A DNA stretch of 29,480 bases, taken from IMG/VR virus record IMGVR_UViG_3300037504_000626, positions 1 to 29,480 of that record; one strand, given 5' to 3'. Source of the stretch: a virus. Numbering within the stretch: the first letter of the stretch is position 1; each line of letters opens with the position of its first letter. Made by a program: the position numbers and the translations under genes. This document shows, one piece after another, positions 6,989 to 27,055 of this stretch. Under the pieces are notes generated by a model, which saw only the letters and a program-made list of their open reading frames with translations, searched no databases and was not told the origin of the DNA.

Positions 6989-7228
6989 ATGAAACAATCA
7001 CAAATCAGCATCGAAAAAACCGACAATGGAGTGCTTGTTACAACCGTGGGATTTAGAGTACCTTCACAAAATGGGAAAACAATTTATGAACACAACGAAG
7101 TCTTGCCAGTAGGAGACCGAATTAAGCCCGGAATGACAGTTTTATTCGGACAGGATGTAAAAATTACACAGAAATTCTATGTAAAAGACATAGAAGAATT
7201 AATTGAATACCTTAAAAAACTAAACTAG
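6989..7228 (+). CDS. Hypothetical beta-rich protein
   Basis: 79 residues, beginning with a beta-rich part (SIEKTDNGVLVTTVGFRV), then GDRIKPGMTVLFGQDVKI and a final helix DIEELIEYLKKLN. The GDxIxxGMTVLFG phrase resembles a small beta-barrel such as the GroES-like fold of the next gene, but the match is too short to classify. It ends 5 bases before a hairpin terminator candidate. Confidence 0.6.
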   Translation: MKQSQISIEKTDNGVLVTTVGFRVPSQNGKTIYEHNEVLPVGDRIKPGMTVLFGQDVKITQKFYVKDIEELIEYLKKLN

Positions 7229-7232
7229 GCAC

Positions 7233-7262
7233 GGTGGGGGTTGCTAATCATCCCCACCCTTT
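7233..7262 (+). terminator. Hairpin terminator candidate
   Basis: GGTGGGG 7233-7239 pairs with CCCCACC 7252-7258 around a 12-base loop. The following CTTTCC is a weak U-run, so termination may be partial. The region to 7320 is AT-rich and gene-free. ACCGCCTTTAAAAA at 7294-7307 echoes ACCGCCTTATAAAAA at 6911-6925, upstream of the previous gene. Confidence 0.5.
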
Positions 7263-7320
7263 CCATATATTATAAAGAAAAAACTATAACAAAACCGCCT
7301 TTAAAAATTAATATAACTTA

Positions 7321-7560
7321 ATGCAACCAAGAAAAGACAAAGTGCTAATTAAAGTTAAGGACCGCCAAAAAGCAATTGTTGTCCAGTCAGAAGACACCCA
7401 GCATAAAGTATTAGAGGTGGTTGAAATCGGACCAGACGTGAGCAAAGACCTCAAGAAAGGTGACTTAGTGAAAGTCAGCCCTCAAAATTTAATCGCCTTT
7501 AGCGAGAAAGGTGAAAATTACATCCTAGCTAGCGACGAGGATATAGTTGCTAAAGAATAA
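7321..7560 (+). CDS. GroES-like co-chaperonin (short)
   Basis: 79 residues matching the GroES/Cpn10 order: PRKDKVLIKVKD, then a reduced loop region (RQKAIVVQSEDTQHK), VLEVVEIGP, KKGDLVKVSPQNLIAF and YILASDEDIVA. Bacterial GroES is about 97 residues; most of the loss is in the mobile loop that docks on GroEL. Phage co-chaperonins (for example T4 gp31) let the host GroEL fold capsid protein. Whether this short loop can still bind GroEL is uncertain. It stands just before the glycosyltransferase block, with a 4-base gap to the next ATG. Confidence 0.75.
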   Translation: MQPRKDKVLIKVKDRQKAIVVQSEDTQHKVLEVVEIGPDVSKDLKKGDLVKVSPQNLIAFSEKGENYILASDEDIVAKE

Positions 7561-7564
7561 AAAA

Positions 7565-9013
7565 ATGGAAATTATAGTCGTCCAATTCAACCAACCCAAA
7601 CTCACCACCGAGACTATCAAGTCTATCAAGAAGCACACTAAAGGACCTTATAAGCTAACAGTCCACGACAACTACCCCCAAAATGAAAATCTGGCGATTG
7701 TATGGAATAGACTAATAGAACAAAGTGACGAGGAGATTATTTGTCTTTTTAATGATGACGCTGTAGCTGAAGAAGGCTGGGATAAGATGCGAGAAGTCCT
7801 TAAGGACCCTAAAGTGGGAGCGGTGGGCCCAACAACTAACAATTGCGGCAGCGAACAAAAAGACATGCCCAGGTCTGACAAAATCCAAGAGTCTAAAGAC
7901 ATTTCTGGGTTTTGTTATTTGTTCCGAAAGTCAGTCTGGGAGGAAGTGGGTAGATTCCCTGAGGACTTCCCTTTTTACGGCCAAGAGTCTATATTTAACC
8001 GCAAACTTCAAGCAGCAGGATATAAATTAATGATAGACAGGCGCGTTTTTATCTACCATCACAAAGGACAAAGTTACAAAAAAGCAGTAAAGGACGGGAT
8101 AGTCAAGGATGATCAGCGCACAAGAGGGGCGTTTCATTATTGGAACTTTCTTGACAGACTAAATAAAGTTAAACACCTCCCCAAGCCGGTAATTTTGGGA
8201 GCGGGAAAAGGCAACCCCTTCCCGACCTTCATGGGAATAGACCAGTTTGTTTCTGATTTTGGTGGTGTTCACTTACCATCCGAGGCAAGTTATGAGGAGA
8301 TAATGAGCCACAAACCCGAGATAGTAATTGTAGTCCAGTCTCGTTATATACCAGAATTACTACAGAACGTCCTCAAGCTTAGAATGGCGGGAGTTAAAAC
8401 AGCACTATATTTCATGGACCTCCGAGAAAATTGGAACTGCCCGATACTGCCTTATGACAATGTTTTTCTTTGTGCCGAAGGATTAGTGGAAAAATGGAAA
8501 GAAAAATACAAAACCAACGTCCACTGGCTCCCCCAAGCCACAATTCAACAACCTGTTATCCCCGAAGGGAAGGGTTACCACCTTGTCCATATTGGGGATT
8601 TAACTAGCCACATCCACGAAAACAGAAAGAGAATAGCAGACCAACTAAACCCGAAGCAAATCAACGAAGTGGACCGCGAAAAGAGAGCGAAAGTTGTCAG
8701 TGAGATGTGGGGAGTTTACGCTAATTCTGATTTTTCTTTGGCCGTCAGCCCTGAAGTGAAAGGGTACACATCAGACCGGATTTATCACATAATGGGCTCA
8801 GGGGGGTGTTTGCTTAGTTACGATCCAGGCGGGCTGGAGCATCTCAAACGTTATGGGTTATGGTTTAAGACTGTGCAGGAAGCCAAAAGACTTTTGGAAA
8901 CCCCGAAAGAAGTTAGGGACCTAATCAAAGAAAAGGCGTTTGACTACACACAAACTAATCATTTATATAAAGATCGTTTAATAGAAATTCTATGCACTGG
9001 GCTCAAAAATTAA
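7565..9013 (+). CDS. Two-domain glycosyltransferase (GT2-like plus GT-B-like)
   Basis: 482 residues from ATG 7565; a TTG 18 bases upstream is less likely. Residues 1-200 are a GT-A/GT2-type domain: IIVVQFNQPKLTTETIKSI, a metal-binding type DD at 64-65 (CLFNDDAVAEEGW), and FRKSVWEEVGRFPEDF then GQESIFNRKLQAAGYKL as acceptor loop. Residues about 210-480 resemble the GT-B-like C-terminal region of CgeB-type proteins (KPEIVIVVQSRYI, MGSGGCLLSYDPGGLEHL, YTQTNHLYKDRLIEI). It would transfer sugars from nucleotide sugars to a glycan or protein. It opens a run of four glycosyltransferase-like genes. Confidence 0.8.
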   Translation: MEIIVVQFNQPKLTTETIKSIKKHTKGPYKLTVHDNYPQNENLAIVWNRLIEQSDEEIICLFNDDAVAEEGWDKMREVLKDPKVGAVGPTTNNCGSEQKDMPRSDKIQESKDISGFCYLFRKSVWEEVGRFPEDFPFYGQESIFNRKLQAAGYKLMIDRRVFIYHHKGQSYKKAVKDGIVKDDQRTRGAFHYWNFLDRLNKVKHLPKPVILGAGKGNPFPTFMGIDQFVSDFGGVHLPSEASYEEIMSHKPEIVIVVQSRYIPELLQNVLKLRMAGVKTALYFMDLRENWNCPILPYDNVFLCAEGLVEKWKEKYKTNVHWLPQATIQQPVIPEGKGYHLVHIGDLTSHIHENRKRIADQLNPKQINEVDREKRAKVVSEMWGVYANSDFSLAVSPEVKGYTSDRIYHIMGSGGCLLSYDPGGLEHLKRYGLWFKTVQEAKRLLETPKEVRDLIKEKAFDYTQTNHLYKDRLIEILCTGLKN

Positions 9014-12251: not shown

Positions 12252-12623
12252 ATGGACAAACTAACACCCCAGCAAGCAGACTTCCTACAATACTACCTAG
12301 ACCCCACAAGTGAAACATACAACAACGCCCTAAGAAGCGCTCTAAAAGCAGGATACAAGCAAGAATACGCCGAGAATATCACTCACCTTTTTCCAGATTG
12401 GCTATCGGATATTATCGGGGAGAAGAAAAAGCTCGTAGATAAGGCAAAAAAGAACCTAGACATATTCCTAGAAAGCCAAGATGAAAAGATAGCCCAAGAC
12501 ACAACCAAGTTTGTATTAAAAACACTAGGGAAAAAAGAAGGCTTTAGCGAAAAAATGGAAACAGAACACACTGGAGGAATCACTATAAGTATTAGCAAGG
12601 AAGTAGCAGACAAAAACCAATGA
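12252..12623 (+). CDS. terS: Terminase small subunit
   Basis: 123 residues. LTPQQADFLQYYLDPTSETY and NALRSALKAGYKQEYAENI form the helix-turn-helix region of terminase small subunits, and the rest is helical with a C-terminal EHTGGITISISKE tail typical of the family. It recognises the packaging site and hands DNA to the large subunit, whose gene overlaps by 4 bases (ATGA). It has no good Shine-Dalgarno; GGGAGAGG lies some 15 bases upstream. Confidence 0.82.
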   Translation: MDKLTPQQADFLQYYLDPTSETYNNALRSALKAGYKQEYAENITHLFPDWLSDIIGEKKKLVDKAKKNLDIFLESQDEKIAQDTTKFVLKTLGKKEGFSEKMETEHTGGITISISKEVADKNQ

Positions 12624-13828
12624 AGCTACACGAAAACCAAGCAATTATCGCCAGAGACACTTCAAGATTCCGTGTTTGTTGCACAGGAAGACGCTGGGGA
12701 AAAACAACCCTAGCAGTAGAAGAGATGAAAGGTAAGGCTATCTACAAGGAGGCAAGAGTAGCATATATCGCCCCAACCTACCAACAAGCAAGAGACATTG
12801 CCTGGGAGGCATTAAAAAAAGAACTCCACCCAATAGCGAAGAACATTAACGAATCCCGACTAGAAATTACAGTCCACAACCTAAAGCAAACAACAAGTCA
12901 AATAGTATTGAGAGGATGGGAGTCGATTGAAACCCTCAGAGGTCAATGGTACGACTTTATTGTGATAGATGAGGTAGCAAGCATGAGGAACTTCCAAATG
13001 TACTGGCAGGAGGTAGTAAGACCAACATTGACAGACAGAGAAGGAGAGGCGCTCTTTATCTCCACCCCAAAAGGATTCAATCATTTCTATGAGCTATATC
13101 AGGGGATAAACCCTAAAACTAAAGAAAGGGACCCTGATTATAAAAGTTTCACATTCACCAGTTATGATAACCCGCACGTAACCAGAGAAGAAATTGACAA
13201 AGCCAAGGAAGAACTAACAGAAGACCGCTTTGCTCAAGAATATCTAGCAGACTTCAGAAAGACAGAGGGATTGGTTTATAAAGAATTTAGCCGAGAACAA
13301 CACCTAAGCGAGGAAGAGCCTAGAGCGATAAAGACAATAGTAGGACTTGACTGGGGATACACTAACCCAGCAGCAATCCTACAAATCAAAGTAGACCACG
13401 ACAACAATTACCATATCATTGATGAGTGGTACAAAACACAACAAACCACCGACCAGATAATCCAAAAAGCAAAGAGTTTTACTCCCCAAGAAGTCTACCC
13501 AGACCCAGCAGAACCCGACAGACTAGAAGAACTAAGGAAGGCAGGCCTAAATGTAAGAGAAGTAAATAAAGACATTCCTGCAGGAATTAACAAAGTCAGA
13601 GAACTATTCAAGCAAAATAGAATCAAAATCCACCCTCGTTGCCAAAACCTCATTCACGAGCTTGAGACATACCGTTACCCAGAGAGAGGAGTAGACTTTA
13701 GTAGTAAAATAGACTACAGCGAAAAAGAAACTCCAATCAAAAAGAACGATCATGCCTGCGACTCCTTAAGATATGCCCTATATACAATAGAACCAGAGCA
13801 ATTCATAACTCTTAAGACATCTTACTAG
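12620..13828 (+). CDS. terL: Terminase large subunit
   Basis: 402 residues with both domains. ATPase: Walker A TGRRWGKTT with K28, the YIAPTYQQARD segment, Walker B IVIDE with D117-E118, and LFISTPKGF as coupling motif. Nuclease: GLDWGYTNP with D244, YPDPAEPD with D295/D300, and KKNDHACDSLRYAL with D377/D381, the usual RNase H-type acidic set. This is the motor that packages and cuts DNA. Followed by a 24-residue micro-gene and the portal. Confidence 0.95.
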   Translation: MKLHENQAIIARDTSRFRVCCTGRRWGKTTLAVEEMKGKAIYKEARVAYIAPTYQQARDIAWEALKKELHPIAKNINESRLEITVHNLKQTTSQIVLRGWESIETLRGQWYDFIVIDEVASMRNFQMYWQEVVRPTLTDREGEALFISTPKGFNHFYELYQGINPKTKERDPDYKSFTFTSYDNPHVTREEIDKAKEELTEDRFAQEYLADFRKTEGLVYKEFSREQHLSEEEPRAIKTIVGLDWGYTNPAAILQIKVDHDNNYHIIDEWYKTQQTTDQIIQKAKSFTPQEVYPDPAEPDRLEELRKAGLNVREVNKDIPAGINKVRELFKQNRIKIHPRCQNLIHELETYRYPERGVDFSSKIDYSEKETPIKKNDHACDSLRYALYTIEPEQFITLKTSY

Positions 13829-13903
13829 ATGAAAAAAAAGAAAAAGACCTACGATGGGTCCGGAAAATTGAAAACAGCCGCACCTAACAAAAAGAAGAAA
13901 TGA
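13829..13903 (+). CDS. 24-residue basic micro-protein
   Basis: MKKKKKTYDGSGKLKTAAPN then four Lys. It starts right after the terminase stop (TAG-ATG) and ends in ATGA with the portal gene, so it fills the gap exactly. It may be a real peptide that binds DNA or the portal, or mainly a device for translational coupling. No Shine-Dalgarno. Confidence 0.45.
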   Translation: MKKKKKTYDGSGKLKTAAPNKKKK

Positions 13904-15981
13904 ACAAGATAGAGCAAAAAGCAATTGATATGTTTACGGCCCATCAAAGCCGGTTTTTGACTATCAAAGAAATGTGGGCGGACCTGGAGGCTAGATACTC
14001 TAACCACAGCCGCCCCGGCTCTATCTCTGAACGAACAGAATCTAACATTCAACTTGGTAAGGCTTATTCAATGGTGGAAAACGCCCTGCCAAGACTACTA
14101 TCTCAGCAGCCCAAATATAGGTACCTAGCGGTATCCGCCGAAGACGAGGAAGCAGTGGAAAAATATGAAGCATTCGGCAAATACCAGTGGGAAGAGGCAG
14201 AAGTATCCGACAAAGCCTTAGACCTTGCCAGGTGGGGACTAATGATTGGCCTTGTAGGATACAAGGTGGGGTGGAAAAGAGAAGCCCGACTTAAAAAAAA
14301 GAAAGAGGACACAATTCTTGGGCTAGAGATTAAGAAACCCTTAATCGAGAAACTACCCGTCCTCAAGAAGATGACCAAGAAGAAAAGCAAGGAAGTCCAA
14401 GAGGTAACATCTAATTTCACGTTCGACGTTATTAAACCTTTCGACCTTATATGGGATGTTAACGCTATTTGCCCTCGAGACGCCAAGATGCTCGGCCACA
14501 AGATGCGAAAGACTATAGGAGAGCTTAAGGAATTAGGCTTTGATACTAGCGGGATTAAAGTTAGTGCTGAATCAGACTACTGGAGACGAAGGATGGAAGA
14601 GAAGGACGGAGCAGCAGGAGCGGTTGAGTATACTCTATCAGATAGTGAGCCGGTAGAATTAGTCGAAATGTACCTTTACCACCAAGACAAAGATATTCTT
14701 AAGTTGTACCAAGTCTACCTTGCGGGAGTGGGTGAGGGAGCACACGGGGCAACGTTTGTATTAAGAAGTGAAGAGGCACCACTAGACGAGCAGTTTATTC
14801 CGATGGGAGTTTGGAGGCCAATAAGACGTCCCGGGAAGTTTTACGGCTTTGGGCTAATCGAGCCTTGCACGGGAGTATTAGACGCTGAGGAGGATTATCT
14901 TAATATGCTCATTGAAGCGGAATGGACCAATGTCTGTCGGCCAATGGCATATAACCCTTCGATGCTCCACCACCCGGAAGACCTTGCATTCGAACCTAGG
15001 ATCTTAATCCCGGTTAAAGGAACTGACAACGTCAACAATGCAGTAGGAACGATCGAAACTCCCAAGCCTGACATTGGCGGAGGGATGGCGTTGACGGAAT
15101 ATCTAAGAACAATCCAACAAAACACTAGCGGTATCACTGACTTCCAGACCGGCTCTGACGAAATCAAAGGAGCCAAAACCCTCGGAGAGATCCAAATAAA
15201 AACCGAAGAGTCCAACCAGAGAATTAAGATGATGCTAGACAGTCTAGAGAAAGAATTCCTCCAGCCTCTAGGAGAGATGGTGTTGAACCTTAACAAGCAA
15301 TATCTAGCCGACGAACAAGAGGTATTCTACAGAATACTCGGAAGGAAAGGAGATTTAGGGAGAGAGAAGTTAGACTTTGAAACAGTGGAAGCTATCAAGG
15401 ACGTGTCTATTGTTAGCGGATCGAGCGCTATGGTGATGCAGCAAGCCGAAATACAGAAGTGGAGTTTACTACTCAATCAAGCAGCTCAAGAGTTAAGTTT
15501 CGGACCTATGGGCGTACCGGTAAACCGCGAGAAGATGTGGGAGAATCTACTCGAGAAAGGATTCCTGAGGAAAGACGTGGAAGCCTTCTTACCAAGCGTG
15601 AAGGAAAGAGAGGAAAAAGAAGTAGGAGCCCTTAACGATCAACTTGATCTTGCAGTAGAGGAGAACGACAATATCTTTGCCGCCAGAGTAACTCCCGACC
15701 AAGACCACCCCACGCACCTAAGACTCCACCGCCGAGCATTAACAGCAGAAGCAACCAAGGATCGTCAACTTTATCCATCAGAATTAATCAGACTTAACCA
15801 GCACATTGATGAGCACACCGCCGCAATGGGCGGGCAAGTCCCCAACTATGAACAAGGAATTGCAGGAATGGCTGGACAGCAACCAGGAGGAGCACCTCCT
15901 CAACAAGCTGGTCCAGGAGCAGGACCCGGACAAGGTACGATTCCTCCAAGCAAAAATCCAGGCCCGCCGGGAGTTGGTTGA
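13900..15981 (+). CDS. Portal protein (P22-like)
   Basis: 693 residues, in the range of large podoviral portals. The N-terminal helical part (SNIQLGKAYSMVENALPRLL) leads into a core with NFTFDVIKPFDLIWD and a YGFGLIEPCTGVLDAEEDYL region; GITDFQTGSDEIKGAKTLGE and the C-terminal HPTHLRLHRRALTAE fit P22-type portals. The last 35 residues are Gly/Pro/Gln-rich and overlap a second reading frame. The dodecameric ring is the DNA channel of the capsid and docks the terminase. Confidence 0.88.
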   Translation: MNKIEQKAIDMFTAHQSRFLTIKEMWADLEARYSNHSRPGSISERTESNIQLGKAYSMVENALPRLLSQQPKYRYLAVSAEDEEAVEKYEAFGKYQWEEAEVSDKALDLARWGLMIGLVGYKVGWKREARLKKKKEDTILGLEIKKPLIEKLPVLKKMTKKKSKEVQEVTSNFTFDVIKPFDLIWDVNAICPRDAKMLGHKMRKTIGELKELGFDTSGIKVSAESDYWRRRMEEKDGAAGAVEYTLSDSEPVELVEMYLYHQDKDILKLYQVYLAGVGEGAHGATFVLRSEEAPLDEQFIPMGVWRPIRRPGKFYGFGLIEPCTGVLDAEEDYLNMLIEAEWTNVCRPMAYNPSMLHHPEDLAFEPRILIPVKGTDNVNNAVGTIETPKPDIGGGMALTEYLRTIQQNTSGITDFQTGSDEIKGAKTLGEIQIKTEESNQRIKMMLDSLEKEFLQPLGEMVLNLNKQYLADEQEVFYRILGRKGDLGREKLDFETVEAIKDVSIVSGSSAMVMQQAEIQKWSLLLNQAAQELSFGPMGVPVNREKMWENLLEKGFLRKDVEAFLPSVKEREEKEVGALNDQLDLAVEENDNIFAARVTPDQDHPTHLRLHRRALTAEATKDRQLYPSELIRLNQHIDEHTAAMGGQVPNYEQGIAGMAGQQPGGAPPQQAGPGAGPGQGTIPPSKNPGPPGVG

Positions 15982-16009
15982 AGAAATTAAACAACAATGG
16001 AAACCATAG
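15848..16009 (+). CDS. Small helical protein overlapping the portal gene
   Basis: 53 residues from ATG 15848, in the +1 frame relative to the portal and overlapping its last 134 bases. The sequence NKELQEWLDSNQEEHLLNKL and a second amphipathic helix ending EEIKQQWKP look like a folded, charged helical protein, not like the shadow of a Gly/Pro tail. Its stop overlaps the next small frame (15997). An upstream in-frame ATG (15806) is less likely. Function unknown. Confidence 0.55.
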   Translation: MNKELQEWLDSNQEEHLLNKLVQEQDPDKVRFLQAKIQARRELVEEIKQQWKP

Positions 16010-16176
16010 ACTTTGAAAGAATGCTGGAACTTACCGGCAGAAAACCAGTATCACCAAGAAAACCTAAGTTTTTAACACATTATCCGGAGAGCTTCAACTC
16101 CGTTAAAAAACAGTCGTACAATTATGGAAAAAGAAAACCAGAGCGTAAACCCAGAGTCAAGCCAAGACTCGTCTGA
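15997..16176 (+). CDS. Basic proline-rich small protein
   Basis: 59 residues: METIDFERMLELTGRKPVSP, then a Lys/Arg/Pro-rich tail (RKPERKPRVKPRLV). It begins inside the preceding small gene and overlaps the scaffold gene by 53 bases in another frame. The N-terminal helix looks real, while the tail could partly be a by-product of the overlap, so the call is tentative. No Shine-Dalgarno. Confidence 0.45.
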   Translation: METIDFERMLELTGRKPVSPRKPKFLTHYPESFNSVKKQSYNYGKRKPERKPRVKPRLV

Positions 16177-16675
16177 CGCTCCAGACAAACAAGAGCAGAC
16201 CCCTGCCGCCAGTGAAGGCGTAAACACTCAGGAGGTTGAACGGCTTAAAGAGATTAATGAAAATCTCAAAAAAGCAATCAAGGAAGAACGGGAAAAAAGA
16301 AAAAAGGATCCCGTGAAACCTAAGGAGCCTGAAAGCGAGGATGAGGAGTGGCAAGAATGGGAGGAAGTTAAGACTACTGTTGCCATGGTAAAACTCCAAG
16401 AGCAAGACCCAACATTCAATGATCGAAAAGACCTAGTGATCGATGAAATGAAAAGAACAGGGAAGTCTCTGGAAGATGCCAACAACTCAGTGCTAGCTTC
16501 ACTTGTTCGCTACTCGATGTCCACACCGGAACAGGCGCCAGAATCACCTAACACAATAAGACCAAGCGCCACTCCCGAGCCACAGCAGGACTCTCGCTCT
16601 TCTTATGAACGAATTAAGCAAGGAGAATTTCAGAACGAAGACGAAAGAATTCTCGCCAAACTCTGGAGCCGCTAA
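16124..16675 (+). CDS. Capsid scaffolding protein
   Basis: 183 residues, very acidic and Glu/Lys/Gln-rich. Residues 1-35 are disordered, then a coiled coil (QEVERLKEINENLKKAIKEE), a middle with SEDEEWQEWEEVKTTVAMVKL, and a C-terminal helix QNEDERILAKLWSR. Composition, size and position between portal and capsid gene are those of phage scaffolds, which guide capsid assembly and are then released or cut. Confidence 0.75.
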   Translation: MEKENQSVNPESSQDSSDAPDKQEQTPAASEGVNTQEVERLKEINENLKKAIKEEREKRKKDPVKPKEPESEDEEWQEWEEVKTTVAMVKLQEQDPTFNDRKDLVIDEMKRTGKSLEDANNSVLASLVRYSMSTPEQAPESPNTIRPSATPEPQQDSRSSYERIKQGEFQNEDERILAKLWSR

Positions 16676-16682
16676 CAGATAA

Positions 16683-17585
16683 ATGGCTAATATCACAGGA
16701 CAGAACACTAGCACAACCGGAGATTACAGAATCTCGGAAGTGTGGAGTGAAAGGGTCGCCGAGCAGTTGCAGGCCAATTTGCAGGCAACCCGAACCTTCG
16801 CCGACTTCTCGGAGGAGGCAATGAGTAGAGGAGATGTAATCCACATCCCTTCAAAAGAAACCGCTAAATCAGTGGTGACCTTTACTGAAGGAAACCAGTT
16901 GCTTGACAACTTGGCAGCTGCCACTGAAACCGGCACTAACCTAACGATTGAAACTTATGAGGTGTTGCCTTTCACAGTCAGCCGGAAGCTTAAGAAGCAG
17001 TCTTTCTACCGCGAGAAAGACCTTGAATACCGAAACGCTGCTTACGCGATTGCTAAAGCAGTTGATACCGCTATTCTTGCCAACTCTTCAAGCTTTGACA
17101 ACACTGTCAACTCTGGTGGTGGAACCATCACCAACAAAGACTTGACGCAAGCCCTGACCAACCTTGACGAGGCGGACGTGCCGGAGACTGATAGGACTTG
17201 GTTATTCTCCCCTGCTTCCTTGCAAGACTTGATGGACTTGTCAGGCAACTACTTTACCTCTTTTGACTTCGCCGGGTCTAAGACTTTAGTGGAAGGAACC
17301 CGAGGATTGTTGAGCGATATGATCTTGGGCTCCCCTGCCATCAAGACCACCAACCTACCGACAGGAAGCTTTGGAAGTCCAGCGACTTCTGGAGTATATA
17401 ACTTATATGCTCACCGAGACGCTATTGCTTACGCAATGCAATTCCGCCCGACTGTTGAAGAAACTAAGCCGGGAGACGGAGTCGAGATTAACATCCAAGG
17501 ACAGCTTTGTAACGTATACACCCTATACGGCACTACTGCCTGGAGAACTGATCACGGAGTCCGAATCGGAAGGAGCAGTTCCTAG
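16683..17585 (+). CDS. Major capsid protein
   Basis: 300 residues. The N-terminus MANITGQNTSTTGDYRISEV leads to a domain with SRGDVIHIPSKETA (like P22/N4-type coats), LKKQSFYREKDLEYRNAAYA as spine helix and LYAHRDAIAYAMQFRPTVE, ending WRTDHGVRIGRSSS. These are features of HK97-fold coat proteins of podoviral type. It follows the scaffold by 7 bases and is followed by a stable hairpin. There is no Shine-Dalgarno despite the expected high output. Confidence 0.88.
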   Translation: MANITGQNTSTTGDYRISEVWSERVAEQLQANLQATRTFADFSEEAMSRGDVIHIPSKETAKSVVTFTEGNQLLDNLAAATETGTNLTIETYEVLPFTVSRKLKKQSFYREKDLEYRNAAYAIAKAVDTAILANSSSFDNTVNSGGGTITNKDLTQALTNLDEADVPETDRTWLFSPASLQDLMDLSGNYFTSFDFAGSKTLVEGTRGLLSDMILGSPAIKTTNLPTGSFGSPATSGVYNLYAHRDAIAYAMQFRPTVEETKPGDGVEINIQGQLCNVYTLYGTTAWRTDHGVRIGRSSS

Positions 17586-17591
17586 TAACTT

Positions 17592-17613
17592 AGCCTCCCC
17601 TTCGGGGGAGGCT
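17592..17613 (+). terminator. TTCG-loop hairpin after the capsid gene
   Basis: AGCCTCCCC 17592-17600 pairs with GGGGAGGCT 17605-17613 around the stable TTCG tetraloop. The next bases (TCCCCTT) are not a U-run, so it is more likely an mRNA stabiliser or weak attenuator than a full terminator. The 3' half carries GGGGAGG about 9 bases before the ATG at 17621, so folding would hide that ribosome-binding site. Confidence 0.6.
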
Positions 17614-17620
17614 TCCCCTT

Positions 17621-17794
17621 ATGATTAAAGAATGCCCAAAAGGATGCTTTGTAACCGACAAGAACCAGTACCGCTGCCCCAAATGCGGCCGGCCGTTGCT
17701 TGGACATGGAAAGCGCACCAAGGAAGAGGTGGTGGAGATGTCGAGGCAAAGACAATTCTCTAATAGGTCTGATTTTTTAAGAAAAAATGGCTAA
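17621..17794 (+). CDS. Small zinc-ribbon protein
   Basis: 57 residues: CPKGC at 5-9 and CPKCGRPL at 19-26, a zinc-ribbon knuckle pair, then a basic helical tail (KRTKEEVVEMSRQRQFSNR). Its stop overlaps the next start. Small zinc-ribbon genes at this point in head modules are found in many phages; role unknown. The ribosome-binding site may be masked by the preceding hairpin. Confidence 0.6.
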   Translation: MIKECPKGCFVTDKNQYRCPKCGRPLLGHGKRTKEEVVEMSRQRQFSNRSDFLRKNG

Positions 17795-18422
17795 TCTAGC
17801 AACATACAGAACACTAGTTAAAAACGAATTCGACGACACCTCCAAAAGAGCCGAGGCCGTAATTGACCAGGCTATTAAGGACGTATATCAAGAGATTATA
17901 CGTTACAACTCCAAGGCTCTCTTGGCGGTATCAGAAAGCGACACGACCACGTCAGAAGGAACTAAAGACTACACCCCATTGTCAGATTATATTGACGTAT
18001 TAGAGGTGATGTACAAAGAAAGCGGCGACTACAAGGAACTGCCAAGAGTAAGGTTTGAGAGATATACTGAACACTACATCAATAGAGACAACGGAACCCC
18101 CGAGTGTTACGCGGTGCAAGGGAGGACGTTTCGCTTAATGCCAGCCCCCAAAGAAGCTGGGACCCTTAAAATCCTCCACACCGCTCCGCCCGACGCGATA
18201 GCAGAGGATAACACATCAATAATCCCCGACCGCTACGAGCAAGTGCTTATCTTCGGAGCGTTAGCCAGGGCCTTCGCGTACCAATTAGTGCCAGACGCTG
18301 ACAGCTACCAAAGACTATATAGAACAGCTCTTAACGAAATGGTTCAAGAGATGGGAGCACAGGATGAACCAATCCGCCCCCTCCTCTATGGACGCTATCA
18401 TAGGAATGCCTTTTACCGGTAG
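17787..18422 (+). CDS. Head-tail connector / adaptor protein
   Basis: 211 residues. The N-terminal helices (MANLATYRTLVKNEFDDTSK and AIDQAIKDVYQEII-like) and the beta middle (YTPLSDYIDVLEVMY, ECYAVQGRTFRLMPAPKEAG) with a final helical block (YEQVLIFGALARAFAYQL) match phage adaptor proteins that sit under the portal. The position right before the hub protein supports this. It overlaps that gene by 59 bases. Confidence 0.72.
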   Translation: MANLATYRTLVKNEFDDTSKRAEAVIDQAIKDVYQEIIRYNSKALLAVSESDTTTSEGTKDYTPLSDYIDVLEVMYKESGDYKELPRVRFERYTEHYINRDNGTPECYAVQGRTFRLMPAPKEAGTLKILHTAPPDAIAEDNTSIIPDRYEQVLIFGALARAFAYQLVPDADSYQRLYRTALNEMVQEMGAQDEPIRPLLYGRYHRNAFYR

Positions 18423-20004
18423 ATACATTACAAATAATATTCCATCACTACGAGACGGACTGAACGACGCCATGGAGTCAAGCGAAATCAGAGACACAGA
18501 AATGGCCGATTGTGAGAACTTCACCGTTGACGATGTAGCGATGATAACCGCCCCCGGATATGTTGCAGGAGATGACAACCCACAGCCCGGGCCTTATTAC
18601 GCTATCTACCACTTCAGAAAAGATGATGGGACAAGTGTCCTCATTAGACAAAGACAGAACAAGCTGGAATATTCAGAAGACCAGAACACTTTTTTCACAA
18701 CTGGATGGACCGAATGCACCTTACCAACAGAAGGCAGCCCGGCTGCCACAGTAGAACTTCAAGAAATAACCCCCACCTTCGCCACCCTCAATAACACCGT
18801 GATATTCACTAATGGTAAAAACACGGTGATGAGCAGCACCGACGGTAAGACTTGGAGCTTAGAGCCATCAGTGCCCAAAGCCTACTATGTTATATCTAAC
18901 GGGTTAAACCGCTTAGTTTACGCGAGAACTGATGATGACCCCTCTATTATCCATTGGAGCGACATCAACCAACCAACTACAATTGGAGCTGACAGTTGGC
19001 AATTCATCAACCCTAATGATGGCCAGAAGATTTGGGGGATGGGGATGGCACCCAACGGAGCTTTAATTCTCTTTAAGACCCTCTCCTTCTATTCGATTGA
19101 CGATGTTACGCTGGACACCGTGGGCGTGAACTTTATAGGGAATTTCAAATTAGCTTCTCACCACACCATTCAAACCACCGAGGACTCTATTGTATGCGGG
19201 GGACTTGATGGAATCTATGAATGGAAGGGCGGAGCTATGAGACTAATCAGCGGGAGATTGAAGCAAGGAGGGCGCAACCTCACCCTAAACTCTCAGAGTT
19301 TCAGAGCGGGTTATTATAAGCTGGAGTATCACTTATCGGTGCCGGACACCGATTCAGGGACCACCAACGTCCAGGAGTATGTTGTGTACAAAGCCAGATA
19401 TCGCAACGATCCCCTTCAGCCTTACGTAATCACCAGAAACAAAAGAAATATCGGGTGCTATTGTCATGTTGATGACTTCTCCGTCTTGGGCCGACCAGGT
19501 GGATTGTATATTGGAGACTCCACCGGAGCGACAGGAAGTCCGGCGTCAGGGGGTACTCTCTTTGGGTGGATTAACAGTTACCGTCAAAAAACCTACCCTC
19601 AAGGACTAGCGGGAGACCCACAGCCGGCATATTTCACTACTAAGTATTTCACGGAAAATGTGGCTTTCTATATGAAGAGAGCAGTCAAAGCCTTTATCCA
19701 CCTTAAAGTCGAGGACAACACCTCCATTGAATTCAGTTATCGCTTCCAGCCTTATGGTGCGTGGGTTAGCCTTGATGAGACGGTAGAGGTAGGAGGGATA
19801 GACTGGGAGTTTAGCGACGGCTCGACAGGAGAGTTTGAGGAAGGGTATGGATTTTATGAGCTTGCGTCCGCTACCGCCTTCTTCGACCTTGAGAAGGGAC
19901 AAGAACCCAGGGGAATTCAATTTAAGGTAGCGTCAAATCAGGTAAATGATGTGCAAATTCTATCTATGGCATATAAAACACTTATTAAACCTATAATGAG
20001 ATGA
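18364..20004 (+). CDS. Tail hub / nozzle-like protein, beta-propeller style
   Basis: 546 residues, mostly beta. Repeated W/Y-x-hydrophobic blades such as NNTVIFTNGKNTVMSSTDGK, NGLNRLVYARTDDDPSIIHW, APNGALILFKTLSFYSI and IVCGGLDGIYEWKGGAMRLI point to a beta-propeller. This fits the tail-hub/stopper group that includes P22 gp10 and the T7 nozzle. It would close the channel after DNA packaging and carry the fibres. GGGAG precedes the ATG by about 6 bases. Confidence 0.65.
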   Translation: MNQSAPSSMDAIIGMPFTGRYITNNIPSLRDGLNDAMESSEIRDTEMADCENFTVDDVAMITAPGYVAGDDNPQPGPYYAIYHFRKDDGTSVLIRQRQNKLEYSEDQNTFFTTGWTECTLPTEGSPAATVELQEITPTFATLNNTVIFTNGKNTVMSSTDGKTWSLEPSVPKAYYVISNGLNRLVYARTDDDPSIIHWSDINQPTTIGADSWQFINPNDGQKIWGMGMAPNGALILFKTLSFYSIDDVTLDTVGVNFIGNFKLASHHTIQTTEDSIVCGGLDGIYEWKGGAMRLISGRLKQGGRNLTLNSQSFRAGYYKLEYHLSVPDTDSGTTNVQEYVVYKARYRNDPLQPYVITRNKRNIGCYCHVDDFSVLGRPGGLYIGDSTGATGSPASGGTLFGWINSYRQKTYPQGLAGDPQPAYFTTKYFTENVAFYMKRAVKAFIHLKVEDNTSIEFSYRFQPYGAWVSLDETVEVGGIDWEFSDGSTGEFEEGYGFYELASATAFFDLEKGQEPRGIQFKVASNQVNDVQILSMAYKTLIKPIMR

Positions 20005-20231: not shown

Positions 20232-20950
20232 TGGCAGTACTAAATCTCAATTGGCCAGACCAAACATATTCCAGCTCTAACAAGCCGTCGGCGGAAACCC
20301 TCCAGCAAGATTTAATCGCGATTGAGACAGTAGTGAACGCTATAGCCGCCACGGCAACCATCTTAGCGGATGGGTCTGTTGAATTTGCTGGCGACCAGTC
20401 GATGGGGGGTAATAAACTTACTACACTTGGGACGCCCACCGCCGCTCAAGACGCAACGACCAAGGCATATGTAGACGCTAGAGGCCTCCCCACAGGAGGA
20501 ACTACGGGGCAGACAATCGAAAAAGACTCCTCAACGGACTATGATGTAAGTTGGGTGGACAATATCAAATACATTCAGGCGATCGTAACCGCGCCTGATA
20601 GCGATGTAACCACCGGTGACGGTAAGGTATATATGCACATTCCGGCAGGATTAAACGGAACAAACTTAACCGAGGTACACGCTGAACTCGTGACAGCTGG
20701 AGGGTCGGGAACCACCGACATTCAAATCCACAATGTCACCGACGCCGTGGATATGCTAAGTACAAAACTAACTATTGACGCCAATGAAACAGGAAGCGAC
20801 ACTGCCGCCGCTGCTGCTGTTATTAATACTTCTAATGATGACGTTGCTACTAACGACAAACTAAGAATAGATGTTGACGCTGTAAGTTCTGGTGGAAGCC
20901 CTGCCGCTACAGCCCAAGGCTTAATTGTAACCCTAGGATTTAAAAAATGA
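20231..20950 (+). CDS. Tail fibre-like protein
   Basis: 239 residues. LQQDLIAIETVVNAIAATAT is a trimeric-type helix, and SMGGNKLTTLGTPTAAQDAT with KAYVDAR is the classic phage fibre repeat. The rest is beta-rich, with low-complexity Ala, Gly, Ser, Thr and Asp. It probably forms a fibre stem or a receptor-binding head. It overlaps the next gene by 4 bases (ATGA). Confidence 0.7.
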   Translation: MAVLNLNWPDQTYSSSNKPSAETLQQDLIAIETVVNAIAATATILADGSVEFAGDQSMGGNKLTTLGTPTAAQDATTKAYVDARGLPTGGTTGQTIEKDSSTDYDVSWVDNIKYIQAIVTAPDSDVTTGDGKVYMHIPAGLNGTNLTEVHAELVTAGGSGTTDIQIHNVTDAVDMLSTKLTIDANETGSDTAAAAAVINTSNDDVATNDKLRIDVDAVSSGGSPAATAQGLIVTLGFKK

Positions 20951-21954
20951 ACCGAACCAAAGAAATCACCGTAACAAGTGCATCTGGCTCACCAACCGCA
21001 AGTTTTGCTATGCCCTTAAAACTAGTTAGTGGGGATGACTCGACAACGGGAACAGGAGACATTGTTTTAGACTGGACAAATATAAACGGGAAAAAGGACA
21101 TTGAAATAAGAGACAACAATAATACTTTGTTGGATTATTATTTCGAAACGTTCGACCTTGTGGCGGAAGAAGCGGTTGCTTGGGTCTACAACACTTGGAC
21201 AAGAGATGGAACGGTGCAAGCGAAGATTAACTATGGAGATGGGGATTCTGACCAATCTGTTGCGTTGACAACAGTTTTCGCCAACGAGTCAACACTTGAA
21301 AGGGGCTTTTTATTAAACGAGTCAAGTGGTAACGCAATAGATATAGCGGGGAATGCGGATGCCACCATTAACGACTCACCCACAAGAGAAGCGGATGGTG
21401 TATTAGGGAAAGCTTATAACTTCGACGGCTCAAATGACTACCTTTTGCCAGGGGCGATTGGGAGCTTTAACACCTTTACTACTATAGTTTGGGTGAATCT
21501 TGATACACTCAAAGACTTTAACGATATTATCGGAGGAGAATTCGAAATAACAATGCTAGCTAGGGCAAATGGGGCGGTTACCTTTGGGGTCGGCGACGGC
21601 GGAGCGTGGGGGAACCTAACAACAACAAGTACAGGAGAGGTATCAGCTGGAAGCTGGTTTATGTACACGCTGAAAGGCGACGGGACAAACATAGAAGTCT
21701 ATCTAAACAAAACCTCTAAGGGGACAGGAGCTACAACAGACAATCTTAATACCACTCCCTATATAGGAACGAGAAACGATGGGGGACCTAAAGCGGGTTA
21801 TGCGACAGACGGCAGAATAGACAACATCAGGATTTATTCTTCTGAGTTAAACGACAATGAGATTGAAGCTATATACGACGGAATGAACCAAACACTGTTC
21901 TCCCAAAGCGAAGCACAATCCTCATTTATCCCTAAAATATTATTTATAAACTGA
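20947..21954 (+). CDS. LamG-domain receptor-binding protein candidate
   Basis: 335 residues. Residues 1-110 are a beta domain of DUF2341 style (MPLKLVSGDDSTTGTGDIVL, YYFETFDLVAEEAVAWVY). From about 120 it reads as a concanavalin/LamG fold: GKAYNFDGSNDYLLPGAIGS, TTIVWVNLDT, GSWFMYTLKGDGTNIEVYLN, then GRIDNIRIYSSELNDNEIEA. LamG domains bind carbohydrate or protein ligands, so it is a likely receptor-binding tip. Confidence 0.75.
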   Translation: MNRTKEITVTSASGSPTASFAMPLKLVSGDDSTTGTGDIVLDWTNINGKKDIEIRDNNNTLLDYYFETFDLVAEEAVAWVYNTWTRDGTVQAKINYGDGDSDQSVALTTVFANESTLERGFLLNESSGNAIDIAGNADATINDSPTREADGVLGKAYNFDGSNDYLLPGAIGSFNTFTTIVWVNLDTLKDFNDIIGGEFEITMLARANGAVTFGVGDGGAWGNLTTTSTGEVSAGSWFMYTLKGDGTNIEVYLNKTSKGTGATTDNLNTTPYIGTRNDGGPKAGYATDGRIDNIRIYSSELNDNEIEAIYDGMNQTLFSQSEAQSSFIPKILFIN

Positions 21955-22797: not shown

Positions 22798-23148
22798 ATG
22801 AGAAGAATCCCACCCCTAAGACGAAAGCCTTCAGTGCCGGAGGCTAGCGCGCAAAAAATAAATAGAACAGACATGCCACCCTCTGTCACCCCCAAACAAA
22901 ACCTGCCCCAAGCTCCACCTAAGGGGAGTGGTGATGAGATCGGTAAAGGCCAATCACCGGTAATTCCTGAGCCCGGGCCTAAAAACCTGCCTGATGACGT
23001 CCTTAAAAAGAAAATCAAGGAAAACTACATGGCAGGGCTTGACTGGGCTGAGAACGCTCTGGTAATGCGCCGAGCCGGTGTTGTTCCTAAGCCAGGGAGT
23101 GAATGGGATAAATTATTTAGGAAATTATACGACCTAGATTATGAATAA
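22798..23148 (+). CDS. Proline-rich hypothetical virion protein
   Basis: 116 residues. Residues 1-70 are Pro/Lys-rich and likely disordered (RRIPPLRRKPSVPEASAQKI). The C-terminal part GLDWAENALVMRRAGVVPKP and WDKLFRKLYDLDYE is a compact helical tail. It overlaps the giant protein gene by 8 bases. Probably a partner of the ejection proteins. Confidence 0.55.
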   Translation: MRRIPPLRRKPSVPEASAQKINRTDMPPSVTPKQNLPQAPPKGSGDEIGKGQSPVIPEPGPKNLPDDVLKKKIKENYMAGLDWAENALVMRRAGVVPKPGSEWDKLFRKLYDLDYE

Positions 23149-26100
23149 TTGGGAAATAACAACACCAGAAGAAATAAGCTCCCTTAGTCTTGATGTGCTA
23201 ACAGAGAAGATGTTGCGTAAAAAAAGGCAAGCGAAAGAAATGTCCGTTGAGGAAGAACAGGTCGAGGAAAAACAGGAAGTCAACCAAACCCCGGTTGCTG
23301 AAAAACAGAAAGTCGACCAAATGCGGACAGAGGAAGCAAAGACTGCCGCTGCTCAAGAAGAACAAGCTTTTAAGCAATACACCCTAGCTAAAGGTGACAC
23401 TGTTTGGGGGGAATTGCGGGAAGATAAGGGACAGGAAGGCGCCTCCGAACTAGTGAGGAATTACGAAGAGACCGCCAGCGAAAGACTCGTGGACGCGGGG
23501 GCTTTTGAAACACAAAATGAGGCTAAAAAATACTTGGATTATTCCTTCAGGAGGATGGCAATTGGAGCCGGGTTTGAGGCAAGTCCTGAACAGATACGTG
23601 TTGAGGATTTTTTCAGCCCTGAAAAAATTGAGCAATACAAACAAAAGAAACAGTCTCGCAAAGACTATGTACTTGGTGAGGATATAGTTAAGAAACTGGA
23701 AGAATCCGGAGACCTTCCCAAAACGGAGCTACCGGAAAAATACCTAAACGCTAAAGGAGAGGAGCGCTCAATTGACTCCGTGGTTGCCAACGAGCTGGGG
23801 TACATCCCTGAGTCAATGGGGGGCAAAGGACCTCAATTAACCGAAGAGCAAAAAAAAGAAGCGGCAAAAACTGCTTCTAGGGAACGATTCAAGATGAAAC
23901 TTGACGGTGAAAACCAAACCACCGAAGAACAGAAAGAAGCGATTGAGGGAAAATCAGTGGGTGAAAAAGCAGCTGAGTTTTTGGTGGGTGGAATCCAAGC
24001 TTACCGAGAGGCGGGGGAGGCGGCCGTTAAATCTAAAGAGGGAGACGAGAAACTAACCCAACTAGAGAAAGAAATTGACACCATCCGTAAAGAATACAAA
24101 GGAGCGGACCTTGAAAAAAAGAACCAATTGGAAAAAGATTACCTAAGGCTATCCGCCAAAAAGGCGGAAGTGCTTGGTGAGTGGGAGGTGGCCAATACCT
24201 ATTTAGCTAAAATGAGCGACAAACAAGCGCTAGGTCTCTCTTTGGGGGCTGCTTCTAACATTGCCATGGTTGCGCCGGTCGCCACCGCGGGCTCTACAGC
24301 CGCTAAAGCTGCTCAAGGAGCGACGGGGAGAGTTCTTGGCAGGCAAATAGCTAAGGGTGTGGCGGGAGCTGCCGCGGAGGGCGCCATTGGCGGAGCGGGA
24401 GAATCTGCCGCTGCTGCCATGGCTCAAGACGCTTCAACAGGAGAAATCGCAAAGTCCGCCGCGGTTGGTGGTGTGATAGGTACGGGACTAGGGATTACCC
24501 TAGGCGCGGGGGGAGCTCTAACCGGTAAACTTGTTAAAAAATTCAAAAAAGGAGTTCCGGACGAAGCTGCTGAGGCTATTGCTAGTAAAGCGAACGCCAA
24601 AGCGGAAGAAATGAGAGCTGAAGGAGCCTCTAACCAAGAAATCGCCGAGGAGGTGGAGAGAGTAATTAAGGAAACCGACCCCGAAAGAGCGAAACTACTC
24701 GAAGCAAAAAGGAAAGGAGACAGGAAAAAGGTGGTAGAACTGGCAGAAAAAACTGACAAAATAGACGAAAAAGAAACTTTGCAGCGCCTAAAGAAAGACG
24801 CCCAAAAAGACCCTGAGGCGAGGAAGGCTGTAGCTGAGAGAGTTTTTGGTGAGGAACCAAAACCCGACCCTAAAAAAGAGGCTATTCAACGAGTATTAAC
24901 GGATGAACCCCTAACCCCGGAAGGTAAAAAGAGATTTGAGGCGGAAGGACTGGAACCTGATGAGGAAACTATTAAGCAATTAGTTGAAACAAATCCGGAA
25001 AAAGCCAAAAAACTTCTCAATGAGGAAACCTACCAAAAATACACCACAGAAGCGCCTCAGGCCGGAAAGCTTACACCAGAGGCTGATGGGATAAAAATAG
25101 GTGATGAAACCGACCGAGGGAGGGTGGAGGACGTATTCACGCTACAAAGTGGGTTACAGCAATATAAGATTAACGGGGAGTGGATAAATGAAAGGCTAGT
25201 TAATAAAGTTGACGCTCCTGTGGGGCTCACGGAAGAAGCAGCGGTAAAGCAAATCAGAAAGTTCGGGGAGGATGAAGTTGAAAAACTTAAAGAAGCTGGG
25301 AAGGGGGACTTAATTGATGATGACGGGTACATTACTCTCTACCACGGGGGGCGTTTTAAGGGCGACAAAATAAAGGCCGATGACGACGGGGTATTCTTTC
25401 TTACTGACAACGCCTCAGAGGCTGCTGAATACGCCAATCTTCCGAGAAACAAAGGGAAGGGAGGGGTTACCGAGATTAAAGTTAGGCCTGAGTTTGTGAG
25501 GTTTAACGAAGGCTCTGGAGAGTTTGAAATATCAACCAATCTAGTTAAAAAAGGAGACCGCTTTGAGGTTGAAAATCCAATAGAGGTAGCAAATAAAATT
25601 AAGGAGGCCCAGTCAGCCGAAAAACAACCTAGAAGAGCAACACAAGAAGCCAAGCAACCAACACCAGAACAGGCGACAAAACCAGCCAAAGGGGAATTAG
25701 ATCTAGCCCAAGAAGCTAAGAAGTATAAGAGTGTGGAGGAGTTTGTAGAGAGTGTTAGAAAAAACGACGCAGTGACGCCCACCAACAAAGTAGTGGCTTC
25801 AAAGAGCGGAGAGCTTCCCGGAAAAATTAGAATGGGGGAGGTTTTAGAACTGAAGGGTTTGAGGGAAAAGTTCCCCGAGATTGAAGACATTCAATTAAAG
25901 CCGAGTGGCGCCGTGAAGAATGCAGCAGTAGACAAGGCTCAAAAGGATTCTATGCGCATAAACAAAAAATATTTTGAGAAAGTTACTAGCGAGAGCGCCC
26001 AAAAAGAGTACAACTCATTTGTAGAGAGTGTTACGAAAAAATACGGAGAAGATGTTACTCTTGAAAAACTCTCTCCGGCTGAAAAAGCTAGATTTGAAGA

Positions 26101-27055
26101 ATTAGAAGCCAACCTTTCTTCCCCTGGTGGTTACAAACTCAAAGAGGACGCGATTCCCGTTATTATCCACGAGCTGGAGCATATCAAACAAAACATAACC
26201 ACCCCCGGAGGTGGGACAACCTATAAGAGTGTTGCAGACCTAAAGGAAAAATACGGAGAAAAATGGGAGAGTTTTGGGAGGGATTCCGCCGGCGGAAGAG
26301 TGAAGTATAATGAGGGTCGAAACATGCCAGACCATGAAGTAGAGGCGTTTTTGGCGATGGATAGATACAAAACCAAATCAGAACTCAAAGAAATCTACAA
26401 CAAAGCCCAAAAACCCAAGCCGAAAGTAGAAACTAAACAACCAACACCAGAAACCAAGCCATTCAAGCCAGAAGTATCCCCAGAAAAACAACCCCAGCTC
26501 GGAGAGTACAAAGGCCCAGGTAAACAAGTGACATCTAAAGTAATTGAAAGAGAGTTTGGCGAGGATATTGCTAAAGAGATGACCTTTTCTAGGTATAACC
26601 TAAAAGAAGGAGCCGACCAAGCCGCTAAAGTAATCAATCAAGACCCCAAGAAAGCGTATAATATCGCCCTAGGACTTGAGACAACTGGAGAGGACGCTGC
26701 CGATGTAATGATCACAAACGAACTTGTCAACAAAGCCAACCCCTACAAAAATAAAGATGGAGACGCCGAGGTTTGGAAAAACCTAGTCACTTCAAACGCT
26801 CGAAGAGGGAGAGCTTTCGGACAAGGGCTAAATGCCATGAAGAGCTCTGTTGATGGCAACAGTGCAGAAGTTTACTTGAAGAGGGTTGTAGATGAACGCC
26901 TCAAAAGAATTAAACCACCCAAAGGCTTTAAAGATGCTACAGAATACATTAATAATCAATCTAAGAATCTCACTCAGAAGGTCCGGAAAGTTAAAAAACA
27001 AGTCGGAATTGAGGATGTCCAGTCCTTCTTTGATAAGATAACTTGTAAAGTATGA
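23141..27055 (+). CDS. Giant ejection protein, polyvalent type, with a metallopeptidase motif
   Basis: 1304 residues. Around 79-95 QYTLAKGDTVWGELRED is weakly LysM-like. Residues about 362-467 are Ala/Gly-rich and hydrophobic (GLSLGAASNIAMVAPVATAG), which may insert in membrane. Residues about 730-790 (LYHGG at 733-737, FFLTDN at 752-757, AAEYA at 761-765) suggest an ADP-ribosyltransferase-like fold, tentatively. H1010-E-L-E-H1014 in VIIHELEHIKQ with E1066 in PDHEVEAFL is a gluzincin-type zinc peptidase motif. Pro-rich linkers (KQPTPE) separate the parts. This mosaic is that of the phage polyvalent proteins injected with DNA. The stop overlaps the next start by ATGA. Confidence 0.7.
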   Translation: MNNWEITTPEEISSLSLDVLTEKMLRKKRQAKEMSVEEEQVEEKQEVNQTPVAEKQKVDQMRTEEAKTAAAQEEQAFKQYTLAKGDTVWGELREDKGQEGASELVRNYEETASERLVDAGAFETQNEAKKYLDYSFRRMAIGAGFEASPEQIRVEDFFSPEKIEQYKQKKQSRKDYVLGEDIVKKLEESGDLPKTELPEKYLNAKGEERSIDSVVANELGYIPESMGGKGPQLTEEQKKEAAKTASRERFKMKLDGENQTTEEQKEAIEGKSVGEKAAEFLVGGIQAYREAGEAAVKSKEGDEKLTQLEKEIDTIRKEYKGADLEKKNQLEKDYLRLSAKKAEVLGEWEVANTYLAKMSDKQALGLSLGAASNIAMVAPVATAGSTAAKAAQGATGRVLGRQIAKGVAGAAAEGAIGGAGESAAAAMAQDASTGEIAKSAAVGGVIGTGLGITLGAGGALTGKLVKKFKKGVPDEAAEAIASKANAKAEEMRAEGASNQEIAEEVERVIKETDPERAKLLEAKRKGDRKKVVELAEKTDKIDEKETLQRLKKDAQKDPEARKAVAERVFGEEPKPDPKKEAIQRVLTDEPLTPEGKKRFEAEGLEPDEETIKQLVETNPEKAKKLLNEETYQKYTTEAPQAGKLTPEADGIKIGDETDRGRVEDVFTLQSGLQQYKINGEWINERLVNKVDAPVGLTEEAAVKQIRKFGEDEVEKLKEAGKGDLIDDDGYITLYHGGRFKGDKIKADDDGVFFLTDNASEAAEYANLPRNKGKGGVTEIKVRPEFVRFNEGSGEFEISTNLVKKGDRFEVENPIEVANKIKEAQSAEKQPRRATQEAKQPTPEQATKPAKGELDLAQEAKKYKSVEEFVESVRKNDAVTPTNKVVASKSGELPGKIRMGEVLELKGLREKFPEIEDIQLKPSGAVKNAAVDKAQKDSMRINKKYFEKVTSESAQKEYNSFVESVTKKYGEDVTLEKLSPAEKARFEELEANLSSPGGYKLKEDAIPVIIHELEHIKQNITTPGGGTTYKSVADLKEKYGEKWESFGRDSAGGRVKYNEGRNMPDHEVEAFLAMDRYKTKSELKEIYNKAQKPKPKVETKQPTPETKPFKPEVSPEKQPQLGEYKGPGKQVTSKVIEREFGEDIAKEMTFSRYNLKEGADQAAKVINQDPKKAYNIALGLETTGEDAADVMITNELVNKANPYKNKDGDAEVWKNLVTSNARRGRAFGQGLNAMKSSVDGNSAEVYLKRVVDERLKRIKPPKGFKDATEYINNQSKNLTQKVRKVKKQVGIEDVQSFFDKITCKV

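What the first reader, a model, noticed from the sequence alone, without database searches (positions are those of the whole stretch)
23141..27055. Ejected giant protein with a zinc-peptidase motif and a possible ADP-ribosyltransferase-like segment
HELEH plus a downstream E-V-E-A, and an LYHGG/FFLTDN/AAEYA segment, occur in one virion protein with a membrane-like Ala/Gly part. Both enzyme types can disarm host defence or modify host proteins at the moment of entry. The toxin-like content is inferred from motifs only.
Basis: partly seen in the sequence, partly recalled or inferred. Interest (0 to 1): 0.65.

Follow-up and report, generated by a model that had tools for sequence, protein, structure and literature searches.

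The report
Phage entry protein with swappable enzyme cassettes
The last large protein of a podovirus-like phage's virion gene cluster, probably injected into the bacterium at infection, carries at its far end a predicted ADP-ribosyltransferase and a possible zinc protease on DNA cassettes that are exchanged between phages; the kind of protein is known, but the recent exchange of one cassette between unrelated phages makes it easy to test.

Summary
The motifs are real. ORF 23141-27055 (1304 aa) has only four histidines, and all lie in the two motifs: H735 (LYHGG), H1010/H1014 (HELEH) and H1065 (HEVEA). The ADP-ribosyltransferase (ART) reading is well supported. ART-PolyVal is Pfam's best hit, though below its cut-off. 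A profile from phage virion RNA polymerases that carry this ART beats all 3000 shuffles. A low-confidence AlphaFold2 model of the cassette retrieves almost only ART folds. His, Tyr and Asp candidates are present. The zinc-peptidase reading rests on HExxH plus a downstream Glu and weak profile scores; its model failed, so it is plausible but unproven. The new observation is that the ART lies on a movable DNA cassette (25066-25621). It is 95.7% identical at DNA level in a phage with almost no other similarity in the stretch compared, at the C-terminus of a different protein. A near-identical sister phage of the window shares residues 1-646, then carries different modules. A sibling of the second phage lacks the cassette too. 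Best explanation: a 'polyvalent'-type ejection protein whose C-terminal enzyme modules, on the predicted cytoplasmic side, are swapped between phages. New member of a known kind; injection, activity and targets are untested.

The parts
23141..27055 (+). ORF of 1304 aa, predicted polyvalent-type ejection protein
23141..25069 (+). conserved carrier region, residues 1-643 (96% aa identity over residues 1-646 in sister phage L001)
24227..24520 (+). Ala/Gly-rich membrane-like segments, residues 363-460
   Evidence: hydropathy
25066..25621 (+). exchangeable ART cassette; 95.7% DNA identity to L002:5997-6552, absent from sister L001
25322..25609 (+). ADP-ribosyltransferase-like domain, about residues 728-823; candidate catalytic H735, Y764, D806
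   Evidence: Pfam PF18760; phage ART profile; fold comparison. D806 is assigned by eye from the phage ART alignment
25661..25720 (+). linker A, 96.7% DNA identity to L001:8359-8418; left edge of the zinc module
25721..26407 (+). possible zincin metallopeptidase module, residues 861-1089
   Evidence: weak
26168..26182 (+). HELEH motif, residues 1010-1014
26333..26347 (+). HEVEA, residues 1065-1069; E1066 is the candidate third zinc ligand (compare invariant E in NEFMAW of N4)
26404..26473 (+). linker B, 91% DNA identity to L001:8403-8472; joined directly to linker A in L001, so the zinc module is missing there
26474..27055 (+). C-terminal helical region, distantly related (42% over 97 aa, starting in linker B) to that of L001
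21956..22786 (+). upstream putative internal virion protein (276 aa), only 70% identical to L001 within otherwise 97-100% identical genes
22798..23148 (+). small gene just upstream (116 aa), overlaps the start of the giant ORF
12620..20004 (+). virion gene cluster: terminase, SU10-type portal, major head protein, other virion proteins

Best explanation
The ORF is a polyvalent-type ejection protein of a short-tailed phage. A conserved N-terminal part with membrane-like segments would be packaged with the DNA and enter the cell envelope on infection (inferred). The C-terminal half would face or enter the cytoplasm (inferred from the T7 gp16 model) and carries effector modules. One is a compact ADP-ribosyltransferase of the phage polyvalent (N4 virion RNA polymerase-associated) type that would modify a host macromolecule early in infection (fold and family supported, activity inferred). 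The other is probably a zincin-like peptidase that would cut the polypeptide to free modules, or cut a host protein (motif only). The modules sit on DNA cassettes between reused linkers and are swapped between phages by recombination (shown by sequence comparison), presumably to match host targets or defences (inferred).
For: ART-PolyVal is the top Pfam match for residues 732-797, and the only one in the window. A profile built from five Schitoviridae virion RNA polymerase ARTs hits residues 728-782; 0 of 3000 shuffles score as high, also with LYHGG kept in place. Pairwise with the Roseovarius podovirus ART, E 0.002. AF2 model of the cassette (pLDDT 58): 34 of the 50 chains listed are ARTs (TreTu, RhsP2, KptA, ParT, PARPs, exotoxin A; Z up to 4.8) over model residues about 60-185. 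The same ART-then-peptidase order occurs in virion RNA polymerases of Roseobacter-clade N4-like phages. Cassette exchange: L001 is 97-100% identical in most virion proteins and 96% over residues 1-646, then differs; L002 shares at protein level only the cassette; L018, 96-98% identical to L002 in the region before the swap, lacks it. Purifying selection on the cassette: 7 nonsynonymous of 23 changes, pN/pS 0.12, p 1e-6. Gene position behind virion genes.
Against: Both Pfam matches are below the gathering cut-offs (17.8 against 31.2 bits; 15.4 against 23.7). The ART matches cover only the first half to two thirds of the families; the part with the third catalytic residue is short and not aligned by the phage profile, so D806 is a guess. 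Fold Z scores are low and the model is poor. The zinc module is no better than planted-motif shuffles against the N4 peptidase, and its AF2 model failed. No proteomics; presence in the virion and injection are inferred. Only three related loci are known.
Confidence: 0.62

Rival explanations
1. The ART fold is real but catalytically dead: a compact NAD-pocket remnant used for binding, or an ART-like fold without transferase activity.
For: The third catalytic residue cannot be placed with confidence by any profile (stop at or before residue 830); the domain is about 100 aa against a 140-position family; IcmQ, which I know as an ART-like NAD-binding fold, is among the top fold matches.
Against: H735 and the strand-2/helix motif with Y764 are intact and kept in L002; pN/pS 0.12; TreTu (112 residues) shows that compact ARTs exist.
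Confidence: 0.2
2. The zinc module only processes the polypeptide in the virion or on entry (as proposed for phage P1 DdrB) and is not a host-directed effector.
For: Iyer et al. 2017 (PMC5512222) propose processing as the common role of such peptidases, and the module sits between other modules.
Against: Sister L001 lacks it in the part sequenced (linkers A and B are joined directly), so it is dispensable for its carrier; N4's protein stays unprocessed in the virion (same paper).
Confidence: 0.3
3. HELEH is chance in a Lys/Glu-rich linker and there is no peptidase.
For: No profile match over a cut-off, N4 comparison within planted-motif controls, AF2 model unusable.
Against: HExxH in only 0.15% of shuffles; in a protein with four His, three of them fall in or next to the presumed zinc site; PhageMetallopep E 0.02; the peptidase profile score is reached by only about 0.5% of motif-planted shuffles.
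Confidence: 0.25
4. The protein is a purely structural internal virion protein and the C-terminal variation is neutral mosaicism.
For: T7-type ejection proteins are known to be mosaic (Swanson et al. 2022, PMC8954989).
Against: The swapped piece is an enzyme-like fold under purifying selection in two unrelated carriers.
Confidence: 0.15

Closest known systems
Virion RNA polymerase of Roseovarius Plymouth podovirus 1 and other Rhodovirinae (Schitoviridae), prototype of the polyvalent ART
   Same: LYHG..FF.T...A..YA ART followed by a charged linker and an HExxH peptidase module, in one large protein; described in PMC5512222 as virion-delivered
   Different: No RNA polymerase here; the protein is 1304 aa instead of about 3700; the ART is shorter; the peptidase similarity is motif-level only
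Polyvalent proteins (Iyer et al. 2017)
   Same: Large late-cluster phage protein joining ART and probable zincin modules
   Different: Both domains are below the Pfam cut-offs; here the modules can be seen to be exchanged at DNA level between phages
T7 gp16-type ejection proteins
   Same: Large last virion protein with membrane-like segments between N- and C-terminal halves; mosaic (PMC8954989)
   Different: No detectable sequence similarity in PHROGs or Pfam; enzyme modules at the C-terminal side instead of an N-terminal transglycosylase
Polymorphic toxins with C-terminal ART tips (Rhs TreTu, RhsP2)
   Same: Constant N-terminal carrier, variable C-terminal tip, compact ART fold
   Different: Phage carrier, internal as well as terminal modules, no immunity gene seen

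Membership tests
Phage polyvalent proteins (PMC5512222) | two or more domains of disparate activity in one polypeptide | tested here: inconclusive
   ART well supported, peptidase motif-level only
Phage polyvalent proteins (PMC5512222) | gene near late virion genes | tested here: met
   directly behind terminase, portal, head and tail-fibre genes
Phage polyvalent proteins (PMC5512222) | packaged and injected with the DNA | not testable with these tools
   needs virion proteomics and a translocation assay
ART-PolyVal (PF18760) | score above the curated cut-off of 31.2 bits | tested here: not met
   17.8-19.5 bits; so not filed as a Pfam member, only as ART-PolyVal-like
ART-PolyVal (PF18760) | His in strand 1, Tyr in the strand-2 region, Asp in strand 5 | tested here: inconclusive
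   H735 and Y764 align with the phage ARTs; D806 is a candidate by eye only
ART-PolyVal (PF18760) | ART fold | tested here: inconclusive
   AF2 model of low confidence; ART structures dominate the matches, best Z 4.8
Zincin-like metallopeptidase | HExxH plus downstream Glu ligand | tested here: met
   HELEH 1010-1014, E1066
Zincin-like metallopeptidase | zincin fold or family score | tested here: inconclusive
   PF18894 15.4 bits against 23.7; model pLDDT 52.7

The most novel reading that the evidence does not exclude
Short-tailed phages of one environment share a pool of exchangeable effector cassettes that plug into the cytoplasm-facing half of unrelated ejection proteins, so that host-modifying enzymes are gained and lost within otherwise near-identical phages together with the receptor-binding gene.
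Probability: 0.3. Interest if true: 0.7.

Novelty: new member of a known kind. Interest (0 to 1): 0.45.

Why it matters
Proteins that phages inject at entry are among the least understood counter-defence tools. Here nature supplies matched pairs of near-identical phages that differ in the predicted effector modules, and the same ART module in two unrelated carriers, so the effect of one injected enzyme could be tested directly in laboratory phages.

Tried and rejected
PHROGs, NCBIfam and Pfam on the whole protein: nothing useful. Close relatives among 50,697 phage records: none for the whole protein or the zinc module, and for the ART only a weak match in Vibrio phage D479 that has Arg in place of His. 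Cassette in genome contigs or plasmids: no confirmed relative; plasmids gave one match at E 6. PDB by sequence: no meaningful match. N4 peptidase profile against the zinc module: not better than controls with HELEH planted. Fold searches with the zinc model: uninformative. Foldseek on the ART model gave no match at E below 0.001 in either library. No alternative cassette of L001 or L018 was found elsewhere.

Full report
What is there. The window is a linear IMG/VR virus record of 29,480 bases. It carries DnaB, terminase, an SU10-type portal, a major head protein and other virion genes, so it is podovirus-like. The last gene of the forward cluster, 23141-27055, encodes 1304 aa. Only four His exist in the protein, and they are the His of LYHGG, HELEH and HEVEA. 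HExxH arises in 0.15% of shuffles.

ART module. Searched alone, the segment gives ART-PolyVal as its best Pfam match (E 0.006, 17.8 bits against a cut-off of 31.2); searched over the window's DNA the match is unique at E 2.5e-5. The prototype named by Iyer et al. 2017 (PMC5512222) is the Roseovarius Plymouth podovirus 1 virion RNA polymerase. Its ART (residues 1023-1096) aligns with the window with E 0.002. A profile from five Schitoviridae ARTs scores 14.4 bits; none of 3000 shuffles does so, also none when LYHGG is held fixed. An AF2 model from the two available sequences is weak (pLDDT 58, pTM 0.49) but has the expected strand and helix order. Among the 50 PDB chains listed, 29 are PARP-type, tankyrase, ParT or exotoxin A domains by title, and TreTu, RhsP2 and KptA (three entries) add five more (that these five are ARTs is my own knowledge). 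All Z are 4.8 or less, so this supports the fold but does not prove it. His (735), Tyr (764) and a possible Asp (806) match the H-Y-D set described for this clade; the Asp is placed by eye, and that the clade's Tyr is the one of the YA motif is my reading, where some phage ARTs have Phe there.

Zinc module. HELEH and E1066 fit HExxH plus Glu, and E1066-V-E-A-F resembles the NEFMAW of the N4 family, whose Glu is invariant. Support beyond motifs is thin: PhageMetallopep E 0.02, and a Rhodovirinae peptidase profile whose score is reached by about 0.5% of shuffles that keep both motifs. Against the N4 peptidase itself it is no better than controls. The AF2 model failed. In Rhodovirinae virion RNA polymerases the ART is also followed by an HExxH module, which makes the reading more plausible.

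Cassettes. L001/L008 (IMGVR 3300037826_000125) has proteins 97-100% identical to the window from the gene before terminase onward, apart from a lectin-like gene (44%) and the 276-aa gene (70%), and 96% over residues 1-646 of the giant protein. The identity stops at 25070. L001 has another module, then linker A joined directly to linker B, so it lacks both the ART and the zinc module in the part sequenced; its contig ends inside the gene. L002 (3300037504_000493) has no other protein-level similarity to the window in the 12.5 kb compared, but carries the ART cassette at 95.7% DNA identity as the C-terminus of a 797-aa protein in a similar gene position. Apart from the giant gene, 110 bases at the window's left end match L002 at 82%. 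L018 (3300038954_000398), 96-98% identical to L002 in the region before the swap and 89-95% after it, has the same carrier start and a shared 74-bp anchor, then a different C-terminus. The variation in L002/L018 begins after the first membrane-like segments, as in the window. Between the two copies of the cassette, 16 changes are synonymous and 7 are not (pN/pS 0.12, p 1e-6), so the cassette has been under selection as protein.

Mechanism. In the T7 model the part of gp16 after the membrane segments projects into the host cytoplasm (PMC8954989). By analogy the swapped modules would be on the cytoplasmic side. An injected ART would act on a host macromolecule before phage genes are expressed, as T4 Alt does (PMC5512222). 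The peptidase, if real, would process the polyprotein or cut a host protein. Only the sequence relations and the exchange are shown; packaging, injection, activity and targets are inferred.

Known or new. Polyvalent proteins, their ARTs and zincins, and mosaicism of ejection proteins are published. What is added here is a member in a small phage with a compact, divergent ART, and direct DNA evidence of recent module exchange between unrelated phages with matched sister genomes.

Noticed in passing
20947-21954: Lectin-like (Laminin_G_3 plus DUF2341) protein, only 44% identical to its L001 counterpart amid 97-100% identical virion proteins; probably receptor binding and fast changing.
   Followed up: partly
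1-110: 82% DNA identity to L002:12442-12551, the only other shared DNA with that phage in the stretch compared; function unknown.
   Followed up: no
7547-9013: Protein with two glycosyltransferase-type Pfam matches at its two ends, upstream of the virion genes.
   Followed up: no
L002:4186-4326 and L018:5001-5141: Tandem repeat PITRAEYQxKFGQQPPQ at the start of the carrier protein.
   Followed up: no
L018:7706-8548: M23 peptidase gene two genes downstream of the carrier protein; L002 has a related gene at 7043-7870.
   Followed up: no
L004:2731-3411 (Vibrio phage D479): Free-standing protein 35% identical to the ART segment but with Arg instead of His in the first motif.
   Followed up: partly
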